Shown piece after piece: positions 1 through 6,038 of a stretch of DNA of 6,162 nucleotides. The DNA is from Clostridia bacterium (lineage in GTDB: Bacteria; Bacillota; Clostridia; DSM-8532): the NCBI GenBank assembly GCA_026418215.1, contig JAOABT010000079.1, positions 1 to 6,162 on the forward strand, read 5' to 3'. The notes beneath the pieces are model-generated. The model made no database searches, had not been told where the DNA came from, and saw only the letters and a list, made by a program, of their open reading frames with translations. Numbering within the stretch: position 1 is the stretch's first letter; each line of letters begins with the position of its first letter. The position numbers and the translations under genes are program-made.

Positions 1-19
1 AGATGTGTATAAGAGACAG
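1..19. other. Nextera/Tn5 mosaic-end adapter (library artefact)
   Basis: The first 19 bases are exactly AGATGTGTATAAGAGACAG, the Tn5 mosaic-end sequence used in Nextera libraries. It sits at the very edge of the window and interrupts the cas5c reading frame. It is untrimmed adapter rather than genome. Position 20 is the first base that can be genomic. Confidence 0.95.
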
Positions 20-194
20 GGACGCTATCAATATACCAGAGGATCGTTGGTTTAAAATAGATAGATTCCGTGATACCCTTGAGGGCTTGATAGGTTGGCA
101 GAACTAAGCTGTGTTTTTCTCCGCCTATTTTTGTAAGAGGGTCCGTGAATAGGGCATAGCGTCCTGTTACCTTATAACACACTTCATTCTTCAT
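20..194 (-). CDS. cas5c: Cas5c (Cas5d), type I-C pre-crRNA endonuclease, N-terminal 58 codons only
   Basis: This is the start of the type I-C Cas5 protein, which cuts pre-crRNA at each repeat (replacing Cas6) and then stays in Cascade, holding the crRNA 5' handle. The visible protein begins [16 protein letters not shown] and includes [20 protein letters not shown] and [11 protein letters not shown], which I recognise as the conserved Cas5d N-terminus. Tyr46 falls where the catalytic tyrosine of Bacillus halodurans Cas5d was reported (Tyr46, from memory). The catalytic Lys/His further on are not visible. The start ATG is set by a strong AAAGGAG at 201-207, six bases upstream. The gene is cut by the adapter at the window edge, so truncation is technical. 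It lies 217 bases downstream of cas3 and appears to have its own promoter (245-274), so it probably heads the Cascade operon. Confidence 0.93.
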
Positions 195-205
195 CTATAT
201 CTCCT

Positions 206-226
206 TTCTTTGATATGAAATTTAGT
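206..226 (+). promoter_or_regulatory. Candidate Cascade target site (PAM plus protospacer-like match) in the cas5c leader
   Basis: TTC at 206-208, the usual type I-C PAM, is followed by TTTGATATGAAATTTAGT (209-226). This matches the start of the spacer-like part of the proposed plus-strand RNA (346-363) at 17 of 18 positions. The PAM overlaps the cas5c ribosome site (201-207). A full ~34-nt protospacer footprint would run to about 243, covering the predicted cas5c start point (~238) and touching the -10 box (245-250). Bound Cascade would therefore be expected to block cas5c transcription. The match and PAM are seen directly; binding is inferred. Confidence 0.72.
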
Positions 227-244
227 ATAAAATGTTTTTAAATA

Positions 245-274
245 ATTATGTTCATATTTAGTGTTTTATGTCAA
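245..274 (-). promoter_or_regulatory. Predicted sigma-A promoter of the cas5c (Cascade) operon
   Basis: On the minus strand there is a perfect TTGACA -35 box (269-274), an 18-bp spacer and a CATAAT -10 box (245-250). The expected start is near 238, giving a ~43-nt leader before the cas5c ATG. It separates Cascade expression from cas3. Confidence 0.75.
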
Positions 275-286
275 TAAAAATTTTTA
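275..286. promoter_or_regulatory. AT palindrome between two divergent promoters
   Basis: TAAAAATTTTTA is a perfect 12-bp palindrome. It abuts the cas5c -35 box on one side and overlaps the first two bases of the plus-strand -35 box on the other. It could serve as an UP-like element for both promoters, though AT-rich DNA can also produce this by chance. Confidence 0.4.
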
Positions 287-314
287 GACTATCTTCCAGG
301 GTTTTTGATATAAT
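285..314 (+). promoter_or_regulatory. Predicted promoter of the plus-strand crRNA-like RNA
   Basis: TAGACT (285-290, four of six to TTGACA), an 18-bp spacer and a perfect TATAAT (309-314) preceded by TG one base away (306-307), so an extended -10. The expected start, seven bases downstream, is about 321, which is the first base of the degenerate repeat. It diverges from the cas5c promoter. Confidence 0.65.
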
Positions 315-320
315 AAAACT

Positions 321-345
321 GTCATCAAATGATGTGGATTGAAAT
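321..345 (+). repeat. Degenerate, shortened type I-C CRISPR repeat
   Basis: The 25-base segment reads GTC at its 5' end and GTGGATTGAAAT at its 3' end (334-345). Both ends agree with the type I-C repeats I know, which are usually about 32 nt. Between them a small hairpin survives: CATC (323-326), loop AAAT, GATG (331-334). This replaces the usual longer GC-rich stem. The base of the stem, G334, is exactly where Cas5c would cut to leave an 11-nt handle. It is a single copy with no array around it. Confidence 0.75.
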
Positions 346-363
346 TTTGATATGAATTTTAGT
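346..363 (+). repeat. Spacer-like segment, near-identical to the cas5c leader (copy at 209-226)
   Basis: TTTGATATGAATTTTAGT differs from 209-226 only at its 12th base (T357 against A220). Identity begins at the first base after the repeat and does not extend left (T345 against C208, A344 against T207) or right beyond 363. The copies are 137 bases apart in the same orientation, on either side of the two promoters. Confidence 0.8.
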
Positions 364-373
364 TGTTGGGGAT

Positions 374-407
374 ACCGCCATGGTGTAGAACGATACATCA
401 TGGCGGT
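374..407 (+). terminator. Stem-loop ending the crRNA-like RNA (cas3/cas5c gap)
   Basis: ACCGCCATG (374-382) pairs with CATGGCGGT (399-407), and TGTA (384-387) with TACA (394-397), around the loop GAACGA. In plus-strand RNA the pair between them is G383-U398, giving an unbroken 14-bp stem. In minus-strand RNA it is an A-C mismatch. The plus-strand 3' side continues TTATTTCATT, while the minus-strand side has no U-tract. It therefore suits a plus-strand terminator better than a cas3 terminator. It may also stand in for the 3' hairpin of a normal type I-C crRNA. Confidence 0.6.
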
Positions 408-411
408 TATT

Positions 412-2820
412 TCATTGGCTCAGAAAATCCAGTTTTTTATCCAATACAATCCCTAGCTTTTTGTCATAGAAGCCCTCTCTCAGAATAGTGATGCCCTCAA
501 TAGGAGTAGGGGCAAAGGCACCCTCGTTTGCAAGCTGCCTATATTGATAGTCAAAAACATTAACAGAGAATTGCTGTGCTTCTTTTAAGCAGCGCAGCTT
601 ATCAGACAAGGAATTATTGCTGACAAGCTCACTGATAATATCCTCGCCCTTCCCATAGGGTACCAGGACAGATTTTGTGCAATCCTCAATAACTTCGAAT
701 TGCTCTGATGCTGTTTTAAACATATGTAAGCGTTGAAGAGGGTAAAGCCGGCCATTGGTGTCCTTGTAGGCTGTTCTTATTAAGGGAGGCCCTGCGAGTA
801 TGGCATACAATGACTCTTTTCGTTTTTCCAGCGGATAGTCCATTTGCTTCTTAATTTCACCGTCTTCAAAAAAGCGTTTGTAATACTGATAGATGGCCGC
901 GGGAGATAAAAGGTCGTCACTGAATTGTTCTGGACAGGCTTGGTATTCATGGAGAATGGAGCGCGTGTGCTTTTGCCCCAGCACTATTTCAGGAAGATTC
1001 CTAAGACTTTCACCTTGCACATTAACAATATAGGTTTCTTTGATATCCCCTTCTCCATGCCTGTTGCCTCGGCCCGATGCCTGGGCAATGGAGTCCAACC
1101 CCGCAAGGCTTCTGATAACCGCCTCAAAGCTGATGTCTACACCTGCCTCAATCAATTGGGTACTGATACAAACAACCGGCTCATGGGCACCAAGCTTTTT
1201 ACGAATCTCATGAATGACTTCCTTTCTATGAGCCGGACAGAGGTTCGTACTTAAGAGATACAGTTGATTAGACTCATCCAGCTCACTATCCTTCAAGGCT
1301 TTATAGATATCCTCAGCCGCCTGCTTGGTGTTCAGCACGAACAAAACACTTTTAACCTTCTCTTTAAGCTCAAGAATAAAGGACTTAAGCATATCCGTCG
1401 TATAGCCTCCGGCAACGAGACGGGGTATGACCTTCATTCTTCTAAAAAACTTAAACATCGTCTCGGTGTTTTCTATCATATGTGGGGACTCCGATAACAC
1501 GACAGGTCTGCCTGTCTCGGCAAGGTTAGGCTGAGTGGCTGAGGATAGAATGACTGTGCAATGGCAGATACGATTAAGATAATTTATAGTGTTATTGAAG
1601 AGTGAAATACATTTGATAGGCAGAGCTTGAATTTCATCAAATATGAGGATGGCATTATTGAGTTGATGAAGCCTTCTCATGGACGCCGTTCCTGACTCAA
1701 AGAAGGTATTCAGGAATTGAACCATGGTCGTGAAGATAATGGGACAATCCCACCGCTGTGTCAGTAATTTATACCGCCCGTGCTCTGCATGGATGACATT
1801 GGAATGATGCTCCAGCAGGTTTTCATCACAATCCAGAGCTTCACGCACAACATTGGCATTCTGCTCAATAATCGTGGTGTATGGCAAGACAAAGATAATC
1901 TTGTTCATGCCATGTCGTTTGGCATGCTCCAGTGCAAACCTTAGGCTGGAAAGCGTCTTCCCGCCGCCCGTAGGGACTGTTAAAAGATATATACCTCTTT
2001 CTCTCTTTGCAAAGCTTAGACAAGCCTCAGAGATATGGCGCCTCAGATCATGAATATTTTGCTCCAGTTCTGTCTTTATTACTTTAGAATTAAATACTTC
2101 CAGATTATCTTCAAGACGTGATGCGTAGACTTCCCATAGATTTTTCAGATCGATAGCGGAGTCTGTTGACAGATTCTCCATAAACAGATAGGTGTCATAT
2201 CGATCGCAATCAATTAGAATACTGTAAACCTGTTTAATCATGAGATGGAACGAGAAGCTAACAGGCAGCCCCTGCTCCTTAAGCCTACTTTCAAAAACGC
2301 GGATTTCTGCACAGGCCTCATTAAAAAGGCCTTGAACTTCTTCTTTAGTACAAATTTCAGTAAAAAATCTATTGACACACTGATGATAACCCGAATCTAT
2401 TGATTCCAGCTTAAACCGCTTCAATAACGGAATTTGACAGTCGTCGGTTATGAAATCCTCGAGGCCGCCGTGATGATAGCAAATGACCATAGCAAGAATC
2501 TCTGCCGCGGTCTGTGCGATAGTGTCCGACAGACTATGAAAGGTCAGGTAGACGTACATAGCACCTATCCTTCCATGATCTGTTTTAGGAATGTCCTTTT
2601 CACCTTCTTTGGGTACAGAGGTTGTCATTTTTGAGATAATATAATCCTGGAAATCATCCCCATACTTCCCCATATCGTGGAGGAGCCCCGCAAGTCGGGC
2701 AAGCTTTCCAAGGCTGATGCTTGATCCGTATTCTTCACATTTCTCTGCTACACACAAAAGATGGTCCTTCAGTGTGTGTATGATCTGACCGGATTCCCTA
2801 AAATGTGCTATGTATGGCAT
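412..2820 (-). CDS. cas3: Cas3, type I-C CRISPR helicase-nuclease
   Basis: This is the effector nuclease of a type I system: recruited by target-bound Cascade, it unwinds and degrades DNA from the R-loop. The 802-residue protein is full length and all main motifs look intact. In the N-terminal HD nuclease domain: His20, the HD pair His48-Asp49 (LLHDMGK), His82, His116-His117 and Asp206 (DCDRYDT). In the superfamily 2 helicase: Walker A PTGGGKT (283-289), DEIQ (395-398), SAT (427-429), STQLIEAGVD (553-562) and QASGRGNR (580-587). The start MPYIAHFRES fits the family, with GAGGG placed rather close, three bases before ATG. Upstream is a candidate promoter (2901-2929). Downstream, cas5c is separated by a 217-base regulatory gap, so cas3 is probably transcribed apart from Cascade. 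The order cas3-cas5c is the type I-C order. Confidence 0.96.
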   Translation of the reverse strand: MPYIAHFRESGQIIHTLKDHLLCVAEKCEEYGSSISLGKLARLAGLLHDMGKYGDDFQDYIISKMTTSVPKEGEKDIPKTDHGRIGAMYVYLTFHSLSDTIAQTAAEILAMVICYHHGGLEDFITDDCQIPLLKRFKLESIDSGYHQCVNRFFTEICTKEEVQGLFNEACAEIRVFESRLKEQGLPVSFSFHLMIKQVYSILIDCDRYDTYLFMENLSTDSAIDLKNLWEVYASRLEDNLEVFNSKVIKTELEQNIHDLRRHISEACLSFAKRERGIYLLTVPTGGGKTLSSLRFALEHAKRHGMNKIIFVLPYTTIIEQNANVVREALDCDENLLEHHSNVIHAEHGRYKLLTQRWDCPIIFTTMVQFLNTFFESGTASMRRLHQLNNAILIFDEIQALPIKCISLFNNTINYLNRICHCTVILSSATQPNLAETGRPVVLSESPHMIENTETMFKFFRRMKVIPRLVAGGYTTDMLKSFILELKEKVKSVLFVLNTKQAAEDIYKALKDSELDESNQLYLLSTNLCPAHRKEVIHEIRKKLGAHEPVVCISTQLIEAGVDISFEAVIRSLAGLDSIAQASGRGNRHGEGDIKETYIVNVQGESLRNLPEIVLGQKHTRSILHEYQACPEQFSDDLLSPAAIYQYYKRFFEDGEIKKQMDYPLEKRKESLYAILAGPPLIRTAYKDTNGRLYPLQRLHMFKTASEQFEVIEDCTKSVLVPYGKGEDIISELVSNNSLSDKLRCLKEAQQFSVNVFDYQYRQLANEGAFAPTPIEGITILREGFYDKKLGIVLDKKLDFLSQ

Positions 2821-3145: not shown

Positions 3146-3883
3146 TTACTTGGATTTAATGACCTCAAGCGGCGCTGATGCGTTGGCATAGTTGTCCGGC
3201 GGGCTTTCAAGGGGGGGAGAAGCCCATTTGCAGGCATTGGAAATGACCTTTAAAATGTCCTCGTTGTAATAAATCGGGAAGGATTCGTGTCCGGGCCTGA
3301 AATAGAAGACCTTACCCTTGCCGCGGTTGTAGCAGCAGCCGCTCCGGAATACCTCGCCGCCCTCGAACCAGCTAATGAAAACCAGTTCATCGGGAGCCGG
3401 GATATCAAAGCGTTCGCCGTACATTTCTTCATTGGGAAGCTCTATGTATTCGCCAAGGCCCCCTGCAATAGGATGGCCGCGCTCGATGACCCACAGGCGT
3501 TCCTTTTCTCCCACCTCGCGCCATTTAAGCCTGGCGCTGGTGCCCATGAGCTTTTTAAAGATTTTTGAAAAATGTCCCGAGTGGAGCACAATGAGACCCA
3601 TACCGTTGAGTACACGGTCATAAACCTTATCCACAATCTCATCCTTTACATCACCATGGGCGATGTGTCCCCACCAGATGAGAACATCCGTCTTTTCCAA
3701 GACCTCGTCGGTAAGCCCATGCTCGGGCTCATCCAATGTGGCGGTGCAAACATTGAAGGCTTCATCCTTGCGCAAAGCATCCGCTATGGCCTCATGAATG
3801 CCTTTGGGATAGACCTTTTGGATACGTTCCTCGCTTTTTTCATGCCTGAATTCATTCCAGACCGTTATGTTAAGCTTACTCAT
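3146..3883 (-). CDS. ThuA-family protein (trehalose utilisation-like, class I glutamine amidotransferase-like fold)
   Basis: The 245-residue product is a ThuA-domain protein of normal family length. Visible family features are [12 protein letters not shown], a beta strand leading to WWGH (70-73), GLIVLHSGH (96-104), GHPIA (136-140) and the C-terminal [11 protein letters not shown] (190-200). In rhizobia thuA lies beside thuB, a Gfo/Idh/MocA dehydrogenase, and both are needed to use trehalose and related disaccharides through 3-keto derivatives; the exact ThuA reaction here is not certain. The ATG at 3883 is chosen because AAGGAGGT (3892-3899) lies eight bases upstream and the homology begins there. 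A longer open frame reaching 4162 would only overlap the oxidoreductase in another frame. The gap to the upstream oxidoreductase stop is four bases, so the two are translationally close. A run of seven G (3211-3217) codes for part of the C-terminal PP-rich tail. No signal peptide is visible, so it is likely cytoplasmic. Confidence 0.88.
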
Positions 3884-3887
3884 CTTT

Positions 3888-4946
3888 TTAGACCTCCTTA
3901 ATAGACAGCCATTTTCTACCTTCAAAGGACTCGAGGATGGCATCAAGAATTTTTTGATTGGCGAGACCATCATGAATGGTTGCCGAGAGATTATCGGCCT
4001 TACCCAGAAGGATATCGAAAAAGGCTTGCATCTGATCCTTCTTAAACTCATTAGGAATAGGAATTCGGTGGAAATCATGAGCCCTGCCATAGACATCGCC
4101 AATGCAGACCTCAAGGGTATCTTCATCCTCGAGACTATAGACAAGGCCTCCCTTTTCACCATAAATCTCTAGTCTCTGATAATTCCCCCTGCCAAAAGCA
4201 TAGCGCGCAATGGCAAACATAGCAGGGATACCGCCCTCAAGCTCAGCCATAAAATTGCAGTAGTCATCCACATCAACAGTGCCATATGTCTCTGAACCTG
4301 GGAGCTTTCTTTTCGTGATAAAGGTGCCTGTTTGCCCGCAGACACTGTCAAATTCCCCGACAACAAACCTTGCCAGGTCAATCATATGCGATCCCAAGTC
4401 ACCCAGCGCCCCCGAGCCTGAGACCTTCTTTGAAAATCTCCAGAGAAGCGGGACATCCTCGGAAATAGCCCAGGCCTGTAAATACTGGCCATAAACATGA
4501 TAGAGCTTGCCCAGCGCTCCGCTTTGTACCAGCCAGCGAGCAAATCGCGCAGCAGCCTTGTATCGGTAAGAAAAGCAGACCATATTGGCAACCCCGGCTT
4601 CATCAGCCATTTTACAGAGCTCCTCGGCCTCCTTATAATTCAGGGTAACCGGCTTTTCAAGGGCAAAGGGCTTCTTATACTTGATTGCATTTCTGACAAT
4701 ATCATAATGCGTGTCGTTGGGTGTGCAAATGGTCACGGCATCAACCTCCTCTGACCGAAGCAACTCCACAAAGCTGCTGAAACGATGTGTTTCGGGAACG
4801 CCATATTGGTCTCCAATGGCCTTTAGCGCCTCTTCCCTCACATCGCTGATTGCAACCAGCTCCGCATCCTGCGAGGCCAAGATTCCCTTTATATGGGTGT
4901 GACAAATTATGCCAAGACCAATAACACCGACTCTGATCTTTGCCAT
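3888..4946 (-). CDS. Gfo/Idh/MocA-family NAD(P)-dependent sugar oxidoreductase
   Basis: The 352-residue product is a typical cytoplasmic Gfo/Idh/MocA dehydrogenase. The N-terminal Rossmann fold shows GVIGLGIIC (7-15; the third glycine of GxGxxG is Cys15) and a strand ending in SDVREEA (34-40). CTPN (74-77) and EKP (97-99, the catalytic-region lysine motif) follow. The C-terminal substrate domain has [12 protein letters not shown] (179-190), giving the conserved Asp183 and His187 pair. The start ATG has GGAGGG upstream with suitable spacing. With the downstream thuA-family gene it resembles rhizobial thuB-thuA, where the dehydrogenase oxidises a disaccharide to its 3-keto form. The exact sugar cannot be read from sequence; inositol or other sugar substrates remain possible. 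It is the first gene of its operon and is divergent from an AraC-type regulator. Confidence 0.92.
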
Positions 4947-5003
4947 TTCCTATCCCTCCGTATCAAATTGTCCATTTGTGTTTGTAAAATAAGAACCTGT
5001 TTT

Positions 5004-5013
5004 GATGATCATC
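5004..5013. promoter_or_regulatory. Palindrome GATGATCATC, possible operator
   Basis: A perfect 10-bp palindrome in the 165-base divergent gap between the oxidoreductase and araC genes. It lies next to the araC -35 box (5015-5020) and just after the predicted minus-strand start (~5016), a sensible place for a shared operator. AraC proteins more often bind direct repeats, so the link is weak. Confidence 0.35.
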
Positions 5014-5014
5014 T

Positions 5015-5042
5015 TTGTCTCAATTATAAGCCGTGCTATAAT
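5015..5042 (+). promoter_or_regulatory. Predicted araC-type regulator promoter
   Basis: TTGTCT (5015-5020), a 16-bp spacer and TATAAT (5037-5042) preceded by TGC, so an extended -10. The start would be near 5049, giving a ~63-nt leader. Confidence 0.6.
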
Positions 5043-5051
5043 AATAAGGAA
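5023..5051 (-). promoter_or_regulatory. Weak candidate promoter of the oxidoreductase-thuA operon
   Basis: The minus strand carries TATAAT at 5023-5028, but the -35 position (5046-5051, TTCCTT) is poor. A poor -35 box is common at activator-dependent promoters. It lies within the araC promoter, so the two would compete for polymerase. Confidence 0.35.
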
Positions 5052-5111
5052 TGCAAAAGAGTAGCTTTTTTTGTAATATAATGACCTGCTTTTCGATCAG
5101 GGGGAAGTCCT

Positions 5112-6038
5112 ATGCTGCTTCAAATCAATACAGAAACGCTGCCCGTCATGACGCACTTTGGCTATGTGTCCTATAAGGAGCCCTGGATTCACTTTAAAAG
5201 GCTGACAGACGAATATATCTTCTATTTCATTAAAAATGGTGAGCTTTACATCGAGGAGGATGGGGAGCAGTACGTCCTCCACAGAGGCGACTCCATTCTC
5301 CTTCAGCCAGGCCTCGTTCATAACGGCTATAAAAAAGCCAGCTGTGATTATTTTTACATGCATTTTCGTCACTCAGATATCCGGCAGGTGCAAAAGCCTC
5401 TCAATAAAATACTTGACGAAATCGGCCATATGCGAAGCTCCTCGCTTAAAGGCAACCTCCTGCGAAACACCAGCAGCATGCAAAAGGAGGATGACGCCGA
5501 GATTTGCTATTTACCTAATGTCTATCATGCTTCAAACGAAAGCTCATCGGCATATCTTTTATTCATGCTCAAGGAAGCGGTGGACGATTATTATAGAAAA
5601 AACGAGCACTACAGGGCTTTGGCCTCCTGTAAGCTCGCCGAGCTCATTTTAAGGCTCTCCAGGGAGTTTATTGAGGCTAGCCTGGAAAAATCCGATACCT
5701 CCTACCCCAAGGCCTTCGTTAAATGCCAGGCTCTTCTGGATTACCTCAACAATGAATATCATCAAAAAATCAGCAGTCACGCGATTAGTCAGAGGTTTGA
5801 AACCAATTACGCCTATCTTAATCGTGTCTTTCATAGAATGACCGGCTATACCATCTTCAGCTATTTAAACACCGTTCGTATCAAGAAGGCCACCGAGCTG
5901 ATCGACAATACCTCCATCAGTTTCTCCGAGGTTGGCTATCTGGTCGGCATCAATGACCCGTTTTATTTTTCAAAGCTTTTCAAGAAGCTTGTGGGACAAT
6001 CCCCAACCCAGTATTGCAAAACCAGAATGAAGGCTTAG
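5112..6038 (+). CDS. AraC-family transcriptional regulator with N-terminal cupin sensor domain
   Basis: The 308-residue product has the usual two-part AraC layout. Residues ~20-90 form a cupin-like effector-binding domain (EYIFYFIKNGELYIEEDGEQY, then HRGDSILLQPGLVHNGY). A helical linker follows, and residues ~205-303 are the DNA-binding domain with two helix-turn-helix units. The second carries the family signature FSEVGYLVGINDPFYFSKLFKKLVGQSPTQYCK-like pattern: Gly275, Phe284, Phe286, Phe290, Lys291 and Pro298. The start ATG follows AGGGGG with eight bases between. It is divergent from the oxidoreductase-thuA operon, so it is probably its sugar-responsive activator. Ligand unknown. Its stop codon overlaps the stop of a minus-strand reading frame. 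Confidence 0.93.
   Translation: MLLQINTETLPVMTHFGYVSYKEPWIHFKRLTDEYIFYFIKNGELYIEEDGEQYVLHRGDSILLQPGLVHNGYKKASCDYFYMHFRHSDIRQVQKPLNKILDEIGHMRSSSLKGNLLRNTSSMQKEDDAEICYLPNVYHASNESSSAYLLFMLKEAVDDYYRKNEHYRALASCKLAELILRLSREFIEASLEKSDTSYPKAFVKCQALLDYLNNEYHQKISSHAISQRFETNYAYLNRVFHRMTGYTIFSYLNTVRIKKATELIDNTSISFSEVGYLVGINDPFYFSKLFKKLVGQSPTQYCKTRMKA

What the first reader, a model, noticed from the sequence alone, without database searches (positions are those of the whole stretch)
206..413. CreR-like autorepressor: crRNA-like RNA in a type I-C locus aimed at its own cas5c leader
Seen: a degenerate type I-C repeat (321-345) stands alone between cas3 and cas5c on the opposite strand. The 18 bases after it (346-363) match 209-226, upstream of cas5c, at 17 of 18 positions. 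Identity starts exactly at the repeat/spacer junction, and the target is flanked by TTC (206-208), the type I-C PAM, on the correct side. Known: CreR and CreA RNAs of other CRISPR types pair partly with a promoter so that Cascade binds without effective cleavage. Inference: Cascade loaded with this RNA would sit on ~209-243, over the start point of its own operon, and repress it; loss of Cascade (for example to anti-CRISPRs) or competition from array crRNAs would relieve it. I do not know of a described type I-C example with this layout, but cannot search.
Basis: partly seen in the sequence, partly recalled or inferred. Interest (0 to 1): 0.95.

Follow-up and report, generated by a model that had tools for sequence, protein, structure and literature searches.

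The report
Type I-C CRISPR self-repressing guide RNA
Beside a bacterial CRISPR defence operon sits a lone CRISPR-like repeat whose 18-base guide matches the operon's own control region at 17 bases, and 18 relatives carry the same layout with different guides that match their own operons, so the element is predicted to make a small RNA that would steer the defence complex back onto its own operon and likely turn it down.

Summary
In detail: pseudo-repeat (321-345), guide (346-363), target (209-226, 17/18) and TTC (206-208) are all there, and no 17/18 match arose in 20,000 shuffles. The genome's array repeat, on contig C438, shares the last 12 bases.

Relatives decide it. In 158 cas5c-upstream regions, 17 lone repeats were found; 14 have a match of at least 13/17, all 14 beside TTC although no PAM was asked for. 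In 19 loci with 19 different guides, mismatches fall at position 6 (14/19) and 12 (15/19), and at most 1/19 at any other position up to 15. Those are bases that Cascade flips out. Pairing fades at 16-18. Guides swapped between loci reach at most 12/15; 14 of 15 true pairs exceed that.

Best explanation: a CreR-like autorepressor of type I-C Cascade, built as promoter, one shrunken repeat, short guide and terminator, with no second repeat. Transcription, Cas5c processing and repression are predicted, not shown. CreR is known in types I-B, I-E and V-A. My searches showed no type I-C case, but two key papers were not available, so this novelty is provisional.

The parts
20..194 (-). 5' part of cas5c, first gene of the Cascade operon (contig ends inside it)
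   Evidence: NCBIfam TIGR01876 positions 2-54; Pfam Cas_Cas5d; rest on C438
206..208 (+). PAM TTC beside the target
   Evidence: read directly; TTC at 18 of 19 loci, TTT at one
209..226 (+). target matching the guide at 17 of 18; a whole protospacer would reach about 243
   Evidence: the match ends after position 18
245..274 (-). predicted cas5c operon promoter TTGACA-18-CATAAT
   Evidence: consensus scan 11/12; same spacing to the PAM in L046 and L052
285..314 (+). predicted promoter of the small RNA, TAGACT-18-TATAAT with TG before the -10
   Evidence: consensus scan 10/12; exact TATAAT upstream of the repeat in 10 of 20 loci, 1.7 expected
321..345 (+). degenerate type I-C repeat with a short stem (CATC/GATG); 335-345 would be the 11-nt handle
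   Evidence: stem beats shuffles here (p 0.003)
346..363 (+). guide
374..407 (+). terminator-like hairpin that would end the small RNA, facing the end of cas3
   Evidence: post-guide hairpin z -5.6 here, below -2 in 17 of 20 loci
412..2820 (-). cas3
   Evidence: NCBIfam cas3_core and cas3_HD, Pfam

Best explanation
Between cas3 and cas5c lies the predicted gene of a small crRNA-like RNA that would be loaded into the cell's own type I-C Cascade and would likely repress the cas5c-cas8c-cas7 operon by guiding Cascade onto that operon's own leader. Predicted steps: (1) transcription starts near 321 and ends at the 374-407 hairpin; (2) Cas5c cuts after 334 and leaves the array-type handle UGGAUUGAAAU; (3) Cascade with this guide recognises TTC at 206-208 and pairs over about 17-18 nt, across the predicted start point of the operon; (4) such short pairing holds Cascade on the DNA without bringing in Cas3, so the site is blocked and not cut; (5) when Cascade is scarce, or taken up by array crRNAs or anti-CRISPRs, the operon reopens. 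Shown: repeat, guide, target, PAM, the register of the mismatches and their conservation. Inferred: steps 1 to 5.
For: Guide and target turn over together: 19 loci, 19 different guides, each matching its own leader. Without mask and without PAM, 14 of 17 lone repeats have a match of at least 13/17, all 14 beside TTC, a triplet that makes up 2.8% of that strand. Without asking for a repeat, 12 of 14 TTC-flanked pairs have a repeat end of at least 11/12 before the other copy. In the unmasked set 21 of 29 mismatches sit at positions 6 and 12 (P 5e-14 for an even spread), which Cascade flips out (type I-E structures, PMC5965380 passages). Guides swapped among the 15 loci reach at most 12/15 in 210 trials; 14 of the 15 true pairs exceed that. 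Pairing fades at 16-18; in E. coli type I-E, binding is maximal with no more than 18 bp and interference needs at least 18-25 bp (PMC5904413 passages). Promoter and terminator marks flank the unit. The genome holds cas8c, cas7, cas4, cas1, cas2 and an array.
Against: No transcript, processing or repression data. Of 60 regions upstream of cas3 in cas3-first operons, only one was clear and one weak; four more had a lone repeat without a convincing target. The stem beats shuffles in only 5 of 20 loci taken singly. The best consensus promoter does not touch the protospacer in L105 and L109. One locus has TTT, not TTC. The 19 were selected for a good match at positions other than 6 and 12, so their near-perfect score there is partly by construction; the unmasked test is.
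Confidence: 0.88

Rival explanations
1. An ordinary antisense RNA: the guide pairs with the 5' leader of cas5c mRNA next to the ribosome-binding site and blocks translation, without Cascade.
For: In the window the guide is complementary to the predicted mRNA leader, just before the ribosome-binding site.
Against: In L053 and L084 the target lies between and on the -35 and -10, DNA that is not transcribed. An RNA duplex has no reason to spare positions 6 and 12, nor to need TTC or a repeat end.
Confidence: 0.05
2. Cascade is guided to the leader, but for another end than repression: for example to activate, to prime spacer uptake, or as a decoy that ties up Cascade.
For: Sequence shows aim, not outcome. 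A lone type I-C repeat from a prophage (RacrIC1) inhibits type I-C immunity (PMC10651486 passages).
Against: A decoy would not need a target; here it is kept while its letters change. The protospacer overlaps or touches the best consensus promoter or its start point in 17 of 19, which points to blocking.
Confidence: 0.04
3. A fossil repeat left from an old array, with a chance match.
For: The repeat is degenerate and alone.
Against: Shuffles, swapped guides, recovery of TTC without asking for it and joint turnover of guide and target.
Confidence: 0.02

Closest known systems
CreR, cas-regulating RNA (Liu et al. 2023, not read; described in passages of PMC13131331, and PMC12737573)
   Same: crRNA-like RNA encoded at the cas locus, partly complementary to the leader or promoter of its own cas operon
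   Different: shown for types I-B, I-E and V-A according to PMC13131331; PMC12948488 (passage) calls it a mini-CRISPR RNA. Here: type I-C, which has Cas5c in place of Cas6, one repeat only, a terminator hairpin in place of a second repeat
CRISPR-derived regulatory elements (Shmakov et al. 2023, not held; content recalled)
   Same: standalone repeats with spacers partly matching cas promoters, mostly in type I and in V-A
   Different: as I recall, often mini-arrays of two repeats, tested in type I-F1; whether type I-C cases are listed I could not check
CreTA / CreA (abstract of PMC9458426; passages)
   Same: one or two degenerate ectopic repeats make an RNA that directs Cascade to repress a promoter
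   Different: the target is a toxin RNA gene; here it is the cas operon
RacrIC1 (PMC10651486 passages)
   Same: a single type I-C repeat transcribed by itself
   Different: carried by a prophage next to an anti-CRISPR gene and inhibits immunity; no conserved self-target reported in the passages seen

Membership tests
CreR | CRISPR-repeat-derived RNA gene at the cas locus | tested here: met
   repeat end identical to the array repeat over 12 nt, between cas3 and cas5c
CreR | PAM-flanked partial complementarity to the leader or promoter of its own cas operon | tested here: met
   17/18 beside TTC; 19 loci with 19 guides
CreR | RNA is made and processed by the cognate Cas nuclease | not testable with these tools
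   only promoter-, stem- and terminator-like marks
CreR | Cas effector with this RNA represses the cas operon | not testable with these tools
   needs a reporter test
CreR | two repeats (mini-CRISPR) | tested here: not met
   no second repeat end after the guide in the window; in the 20 loci a hairpin follows instead in 17. Treated as a variant feature, since single-repeat cases exist among CreA (abstract)
CreTA | target is the promoter of a toxin RNA | tested here: not met
   the gene after the target is cas5c here; cas5c or cas3 in the other loci where a gene was read, with L134 having a short ORF in between
Racr | carried by a phage, prophage or other mobile element | tested here: not met
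   lies inside the cas locus; the other window genes are ThuA-like, Gfo/Idh/MocA and AraC-like. Wider surroundings not examined

The most novel reading that the evidence does not exclude
Type I-C systems in many Bacillota families carry a self-contained autorepressor made of one pseudo-repeat, a guide and a terminator. Evolution keeps just the guide bases that a Cascade R-loop reads (1-5, 7-11, 13-15, fading to 17) and frees 6 and 12: a natural bind-but-do-not-cut code, with guide and target renewed together.
Probability: 0.7. Interest if true: 0.8.

Novelty: new variant of a known kind. Interest (0 to 1): 0.72.

Why it matters
It would extend RNA-guided autorepression to type I-C, one of the commonest CRISPR subtypes (PMC7684278, abstract in listing). 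It shows from evolution alone how much pairing is kept for holding Cascade on DNA without self-cutting. It suggests a simple one-repeat, terminator-ended format for Cascade-based gene control, and makes testable whether type I-C immunity answers anti-CRISPRs by switching itself back on.

Tried and rejected
Tried with little or no result. (a) The prediction that cas3-first operons carry the element upstream of cas3: of 60 such regions, one clear (L260), one weak (L232, 11/15 masked), and L220, L221, L248 and L253 with a lone repeat but no convincing target (best unmasked match 11-13 of 17, none beside TTC). So it is not general, although L048, L053 and L057 have that layout. (b) Rfam: nothing in the window at gathering thresholds. 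(c) Named plasmids: 11 of 22 records with a Cas5c match were fetched. One probable case, Lacticaseibacillus paracasei pLPZ1 (repeat end 10/12, 14/17 beside TTC, positions 6 and 12 matched, strong hairpin). Lone repeats without a target in L278 and L279. A look-alike in Paenibacillus L276, seen by eye, is not counted. (d) Liu 2023 was not looked up; Shmakov 2023 was looked up and not held.

Rejected: chance, fossil repeat, antisense RNA as main mechanism, CreTA, Racr; reasons in the rival and membership sections.

Rows and choices. L144 and L149 pass the repeat-free scan without a repeat and are taken as chance. That scan dropped targets made of two letters only, which removed L104. L105 (12/15) is kept in the 19. 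L124 (repeat 10/12, target on the other strand) and L176 (12/17 beside GCA) are not counted. L017, L046, L051 and L061 are one locus, counted once. L232 is in the 20 but not in the 19. Twenty-two phylum hits, nearly all the weakest, were not fetched. Near-identical sister species are counted apart. In one search targets had to be preceded by TT; TTC was not forced. Cas5c starts are estimates.

The claim that no type I-C case was found in print rests on searches, of one open-licence library.

Full report
OBSERVATION. The window is contig C103 of a draft genome (2.84 Mb, 676 contigs, 82.6% complete, 6.28% contamination). It holds cas3 (412-2820, -), the start of cas5c (194, -) and a 217-nt gap between them. 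In that gap, on the + strand, stands a lone 25-nt repeat (321-345) whose last 12 bases equal those of the genome's array repeat on contig C438. The 18 bases after it match 209-226 at 17 positions, and TTC lies at 206-208. None of 20,000 shuffles of the target region reached 17/18. The 17-nt core, positions 6 and 12 free and one mismatch allowed, occurs nowhere else in the genome held. TTC is a type I-C PAM, as in Xanthomonas oryzae (PMC8406640, abstract in listing).

THE SYSTEM. C438 carries the rest of cas5c (profile positions 58-200; C103 has 2-54), cas7, cas4, cas1 and cas2, a cas8c of which the C-terminal part was scanned, and four repeat ends of an array. That the two contigs adjoin is inferred from the two cas5c halves, not shown.

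RELATIVES. Cas5c was sought in the family (8 of 32 genomes with a match), class (61 of 391) and phylum (110 of 398). Four loci came from a Cas3 scan of named genomes. Most hits, not all, were fetched. They gave 158 distinct cas5c-upstream regions. Three looks agree. First, with no repeat asked for: 14 regions hold two same-strand copies at least 14/15 alike, one beside TTC; in 12 of the 14 the other copy follows at least 11/12 of GTGGATTGAAAT. Second, from repeat ends of at least 10/12: 30 candidates, 15 with a target of at least 12/15, all 15 on the strand opposite cas5c and beside TTC, where only TT was demanded. Third, with no mask and no PAM: 17 lone repeats of at least 11/12, of which 14 have a best 17-nt match of 13 or more, all 14 beside TTC, which makes up 2.8% of triplets on that strand.

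COVARIATION. Adding L048, L053 and L057 (operons with cas3 first, target upstream of cas3) and L260 gives 19 loci with 19 different guides. Seventeen are from 12 families by the tool's labels, and L048 and L049 are two named metagenome genomes. At positions 1-15 other than 6 and 12, 1241 of 1315 guide differences over all pairs of loci are matched by the own target on both sides; since the loci were chosen for matching, this number is partly by construction. The fair control is the swap: 15 guides on the other loci's regions reach at most 12/15 (4 of 210), and 14 of the 15 true pairs score 13 or more. In the window's family, window and L052 differ at 4 of 15 guide positions, all tracked by the targets; window and L046 at 6, 5 tracked; L046 and L052 at 5, 3 tracked.

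REGISTER. Mismatches per position in the 19: 0,0,0,1,0,14,0,1,1,1,0,15,0,0,1,4,6,13,18 for positions 1-19. Positions 6 and 12 were masked in choosing these loci, so their rate, close to chance, is unforced. In the 14 pairs picked with no mask, 21 of 29 mismatches fall on 6 and 12 (P 5e-14 against an even spread, taking mismatches as independent). Cascade flips out crRNA bases 6, 12, 18, 24 and 30 (PMC5965380, passages; type I-E structures, carried over here to type I-C). In E. coli type I-E, binding is maximal with no more than an 18-bp PAM-proximal match while interference needs at least 18-25 bp (PMC5904413, passages). The kept match lies where Cascade would bind and Cas3 would not act.

ANATOMY. 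Exact TATAAT occurs upstream of the pseudo-repeat in 10 of 20 loci (1.7 expected). A stem of at least 4 pairs ends at the expected Cas5c cut in 17 of 20, with different paired letters (CATC/GATG, CAGC/GCTG, CAGAG/CTCTG, CATTTC/GAAATG, CGTATC/GATACG); taken singly, only 5 of 20 beat shuffles at p below 0.05. A hairpin after the guide has z below -2 in 17 of 20. So the unit reads promoter, pseudo-repeat, guide, terminator-like hairpin. In the window: promoter 285-314 and hairpin 374-407, facing the end of cas3. Cas5d leaves an 11-nt handle (PMC5965380), here 335-345.

WHERE CASCADE WOULD SIT. In the window, L046 and L052 the best cas-strand promoter scores 11/12 and its -10 ends 36-37 nt from the PAM, so the protospacer covers the predicted start point and about the first 30 nt. 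In L053 and L084 both -35 and -10 lie inside the protospacer. Over the 19, the protospacer overlaps or touches the best consensus promoter or its start point in 17, not in L105 and L109. These are consensus matches, some weak.

WHO LACKS IT. Of the 140 regions outside the set of 18 then known, 123 have a long upstream ORF ending less than 110 nt before the estimated cas5c start, 11 have gaps of 112-199 nt, and 6 hold no long ORF there. In 60 regions upstream of such cas3-like genes there was one clear case (L260) and one weak (L232). The element thus goes with a wide cas3-cas5c gap and is rare otherwise, in the Bacillota sampled. Of 11 plasmid loci one is a probable case, in Lacticaseibacillus paracasei; the Streptomyces plasmid locus has a 421-nt gap and no candidate.

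KNOWN OR NEW. It works like CreR, described for types I-B, I-E and V-A (PMC13131331, passage; PMC12737573, passages, says type I and V-A). My searches turned up no type I-C case, but the library lacks most subscription papers, Shmakov 2023 is not held and Liu 2023 was not looked up; type I-C examples may sit in their tables. I call it a new variant: type I-C, predicted to depend on Cas5c, one repeat with a terminator, and a six-base rhythm visible in evolution.

Noticed in passing
window 1-19: The contig begins with AGATGTGTATAAGAGACAG, which I recall as the Nextera transposon end: likely adapter left in the assembly, so cas5c is read from base 20.
   Followed up: partly
window 3146-6038: Beside the cas genes: a ThuA-family protein, a Gfo/Idh/MocA oxidoreductase and an AraC-type regulator, likely a sugar-use cluster.
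   Followed up: no
window 337-365: In the predicted fold the handle pairs with the 3' half of the guide; it might tune loading.
   Followed up: no
L220, L221, L248, L253: Lone type I-C repeats upstream of cas3 without a convincing target; they may aim elsewhere.
   Followed up: no
L280 4141 (-), Lacticaseibacillus paracasei plasmid pLPZ1: Probable counterpart between cas2 and cas5c in a culturable food bacterium: repeat end 10/12, guide 14/17 beside TTC, strong hairpin.
   Followed up: partly
L053, L048, L057: Here cas3 heads the operon and the target lies upstream of cas3, so the aim follows the first gene of the operon.
   Followed up: partly
L057 (G005): The only locus of the 19 with TTT in place of TTC; its repeat ends GAAGT.
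   Followed up: no
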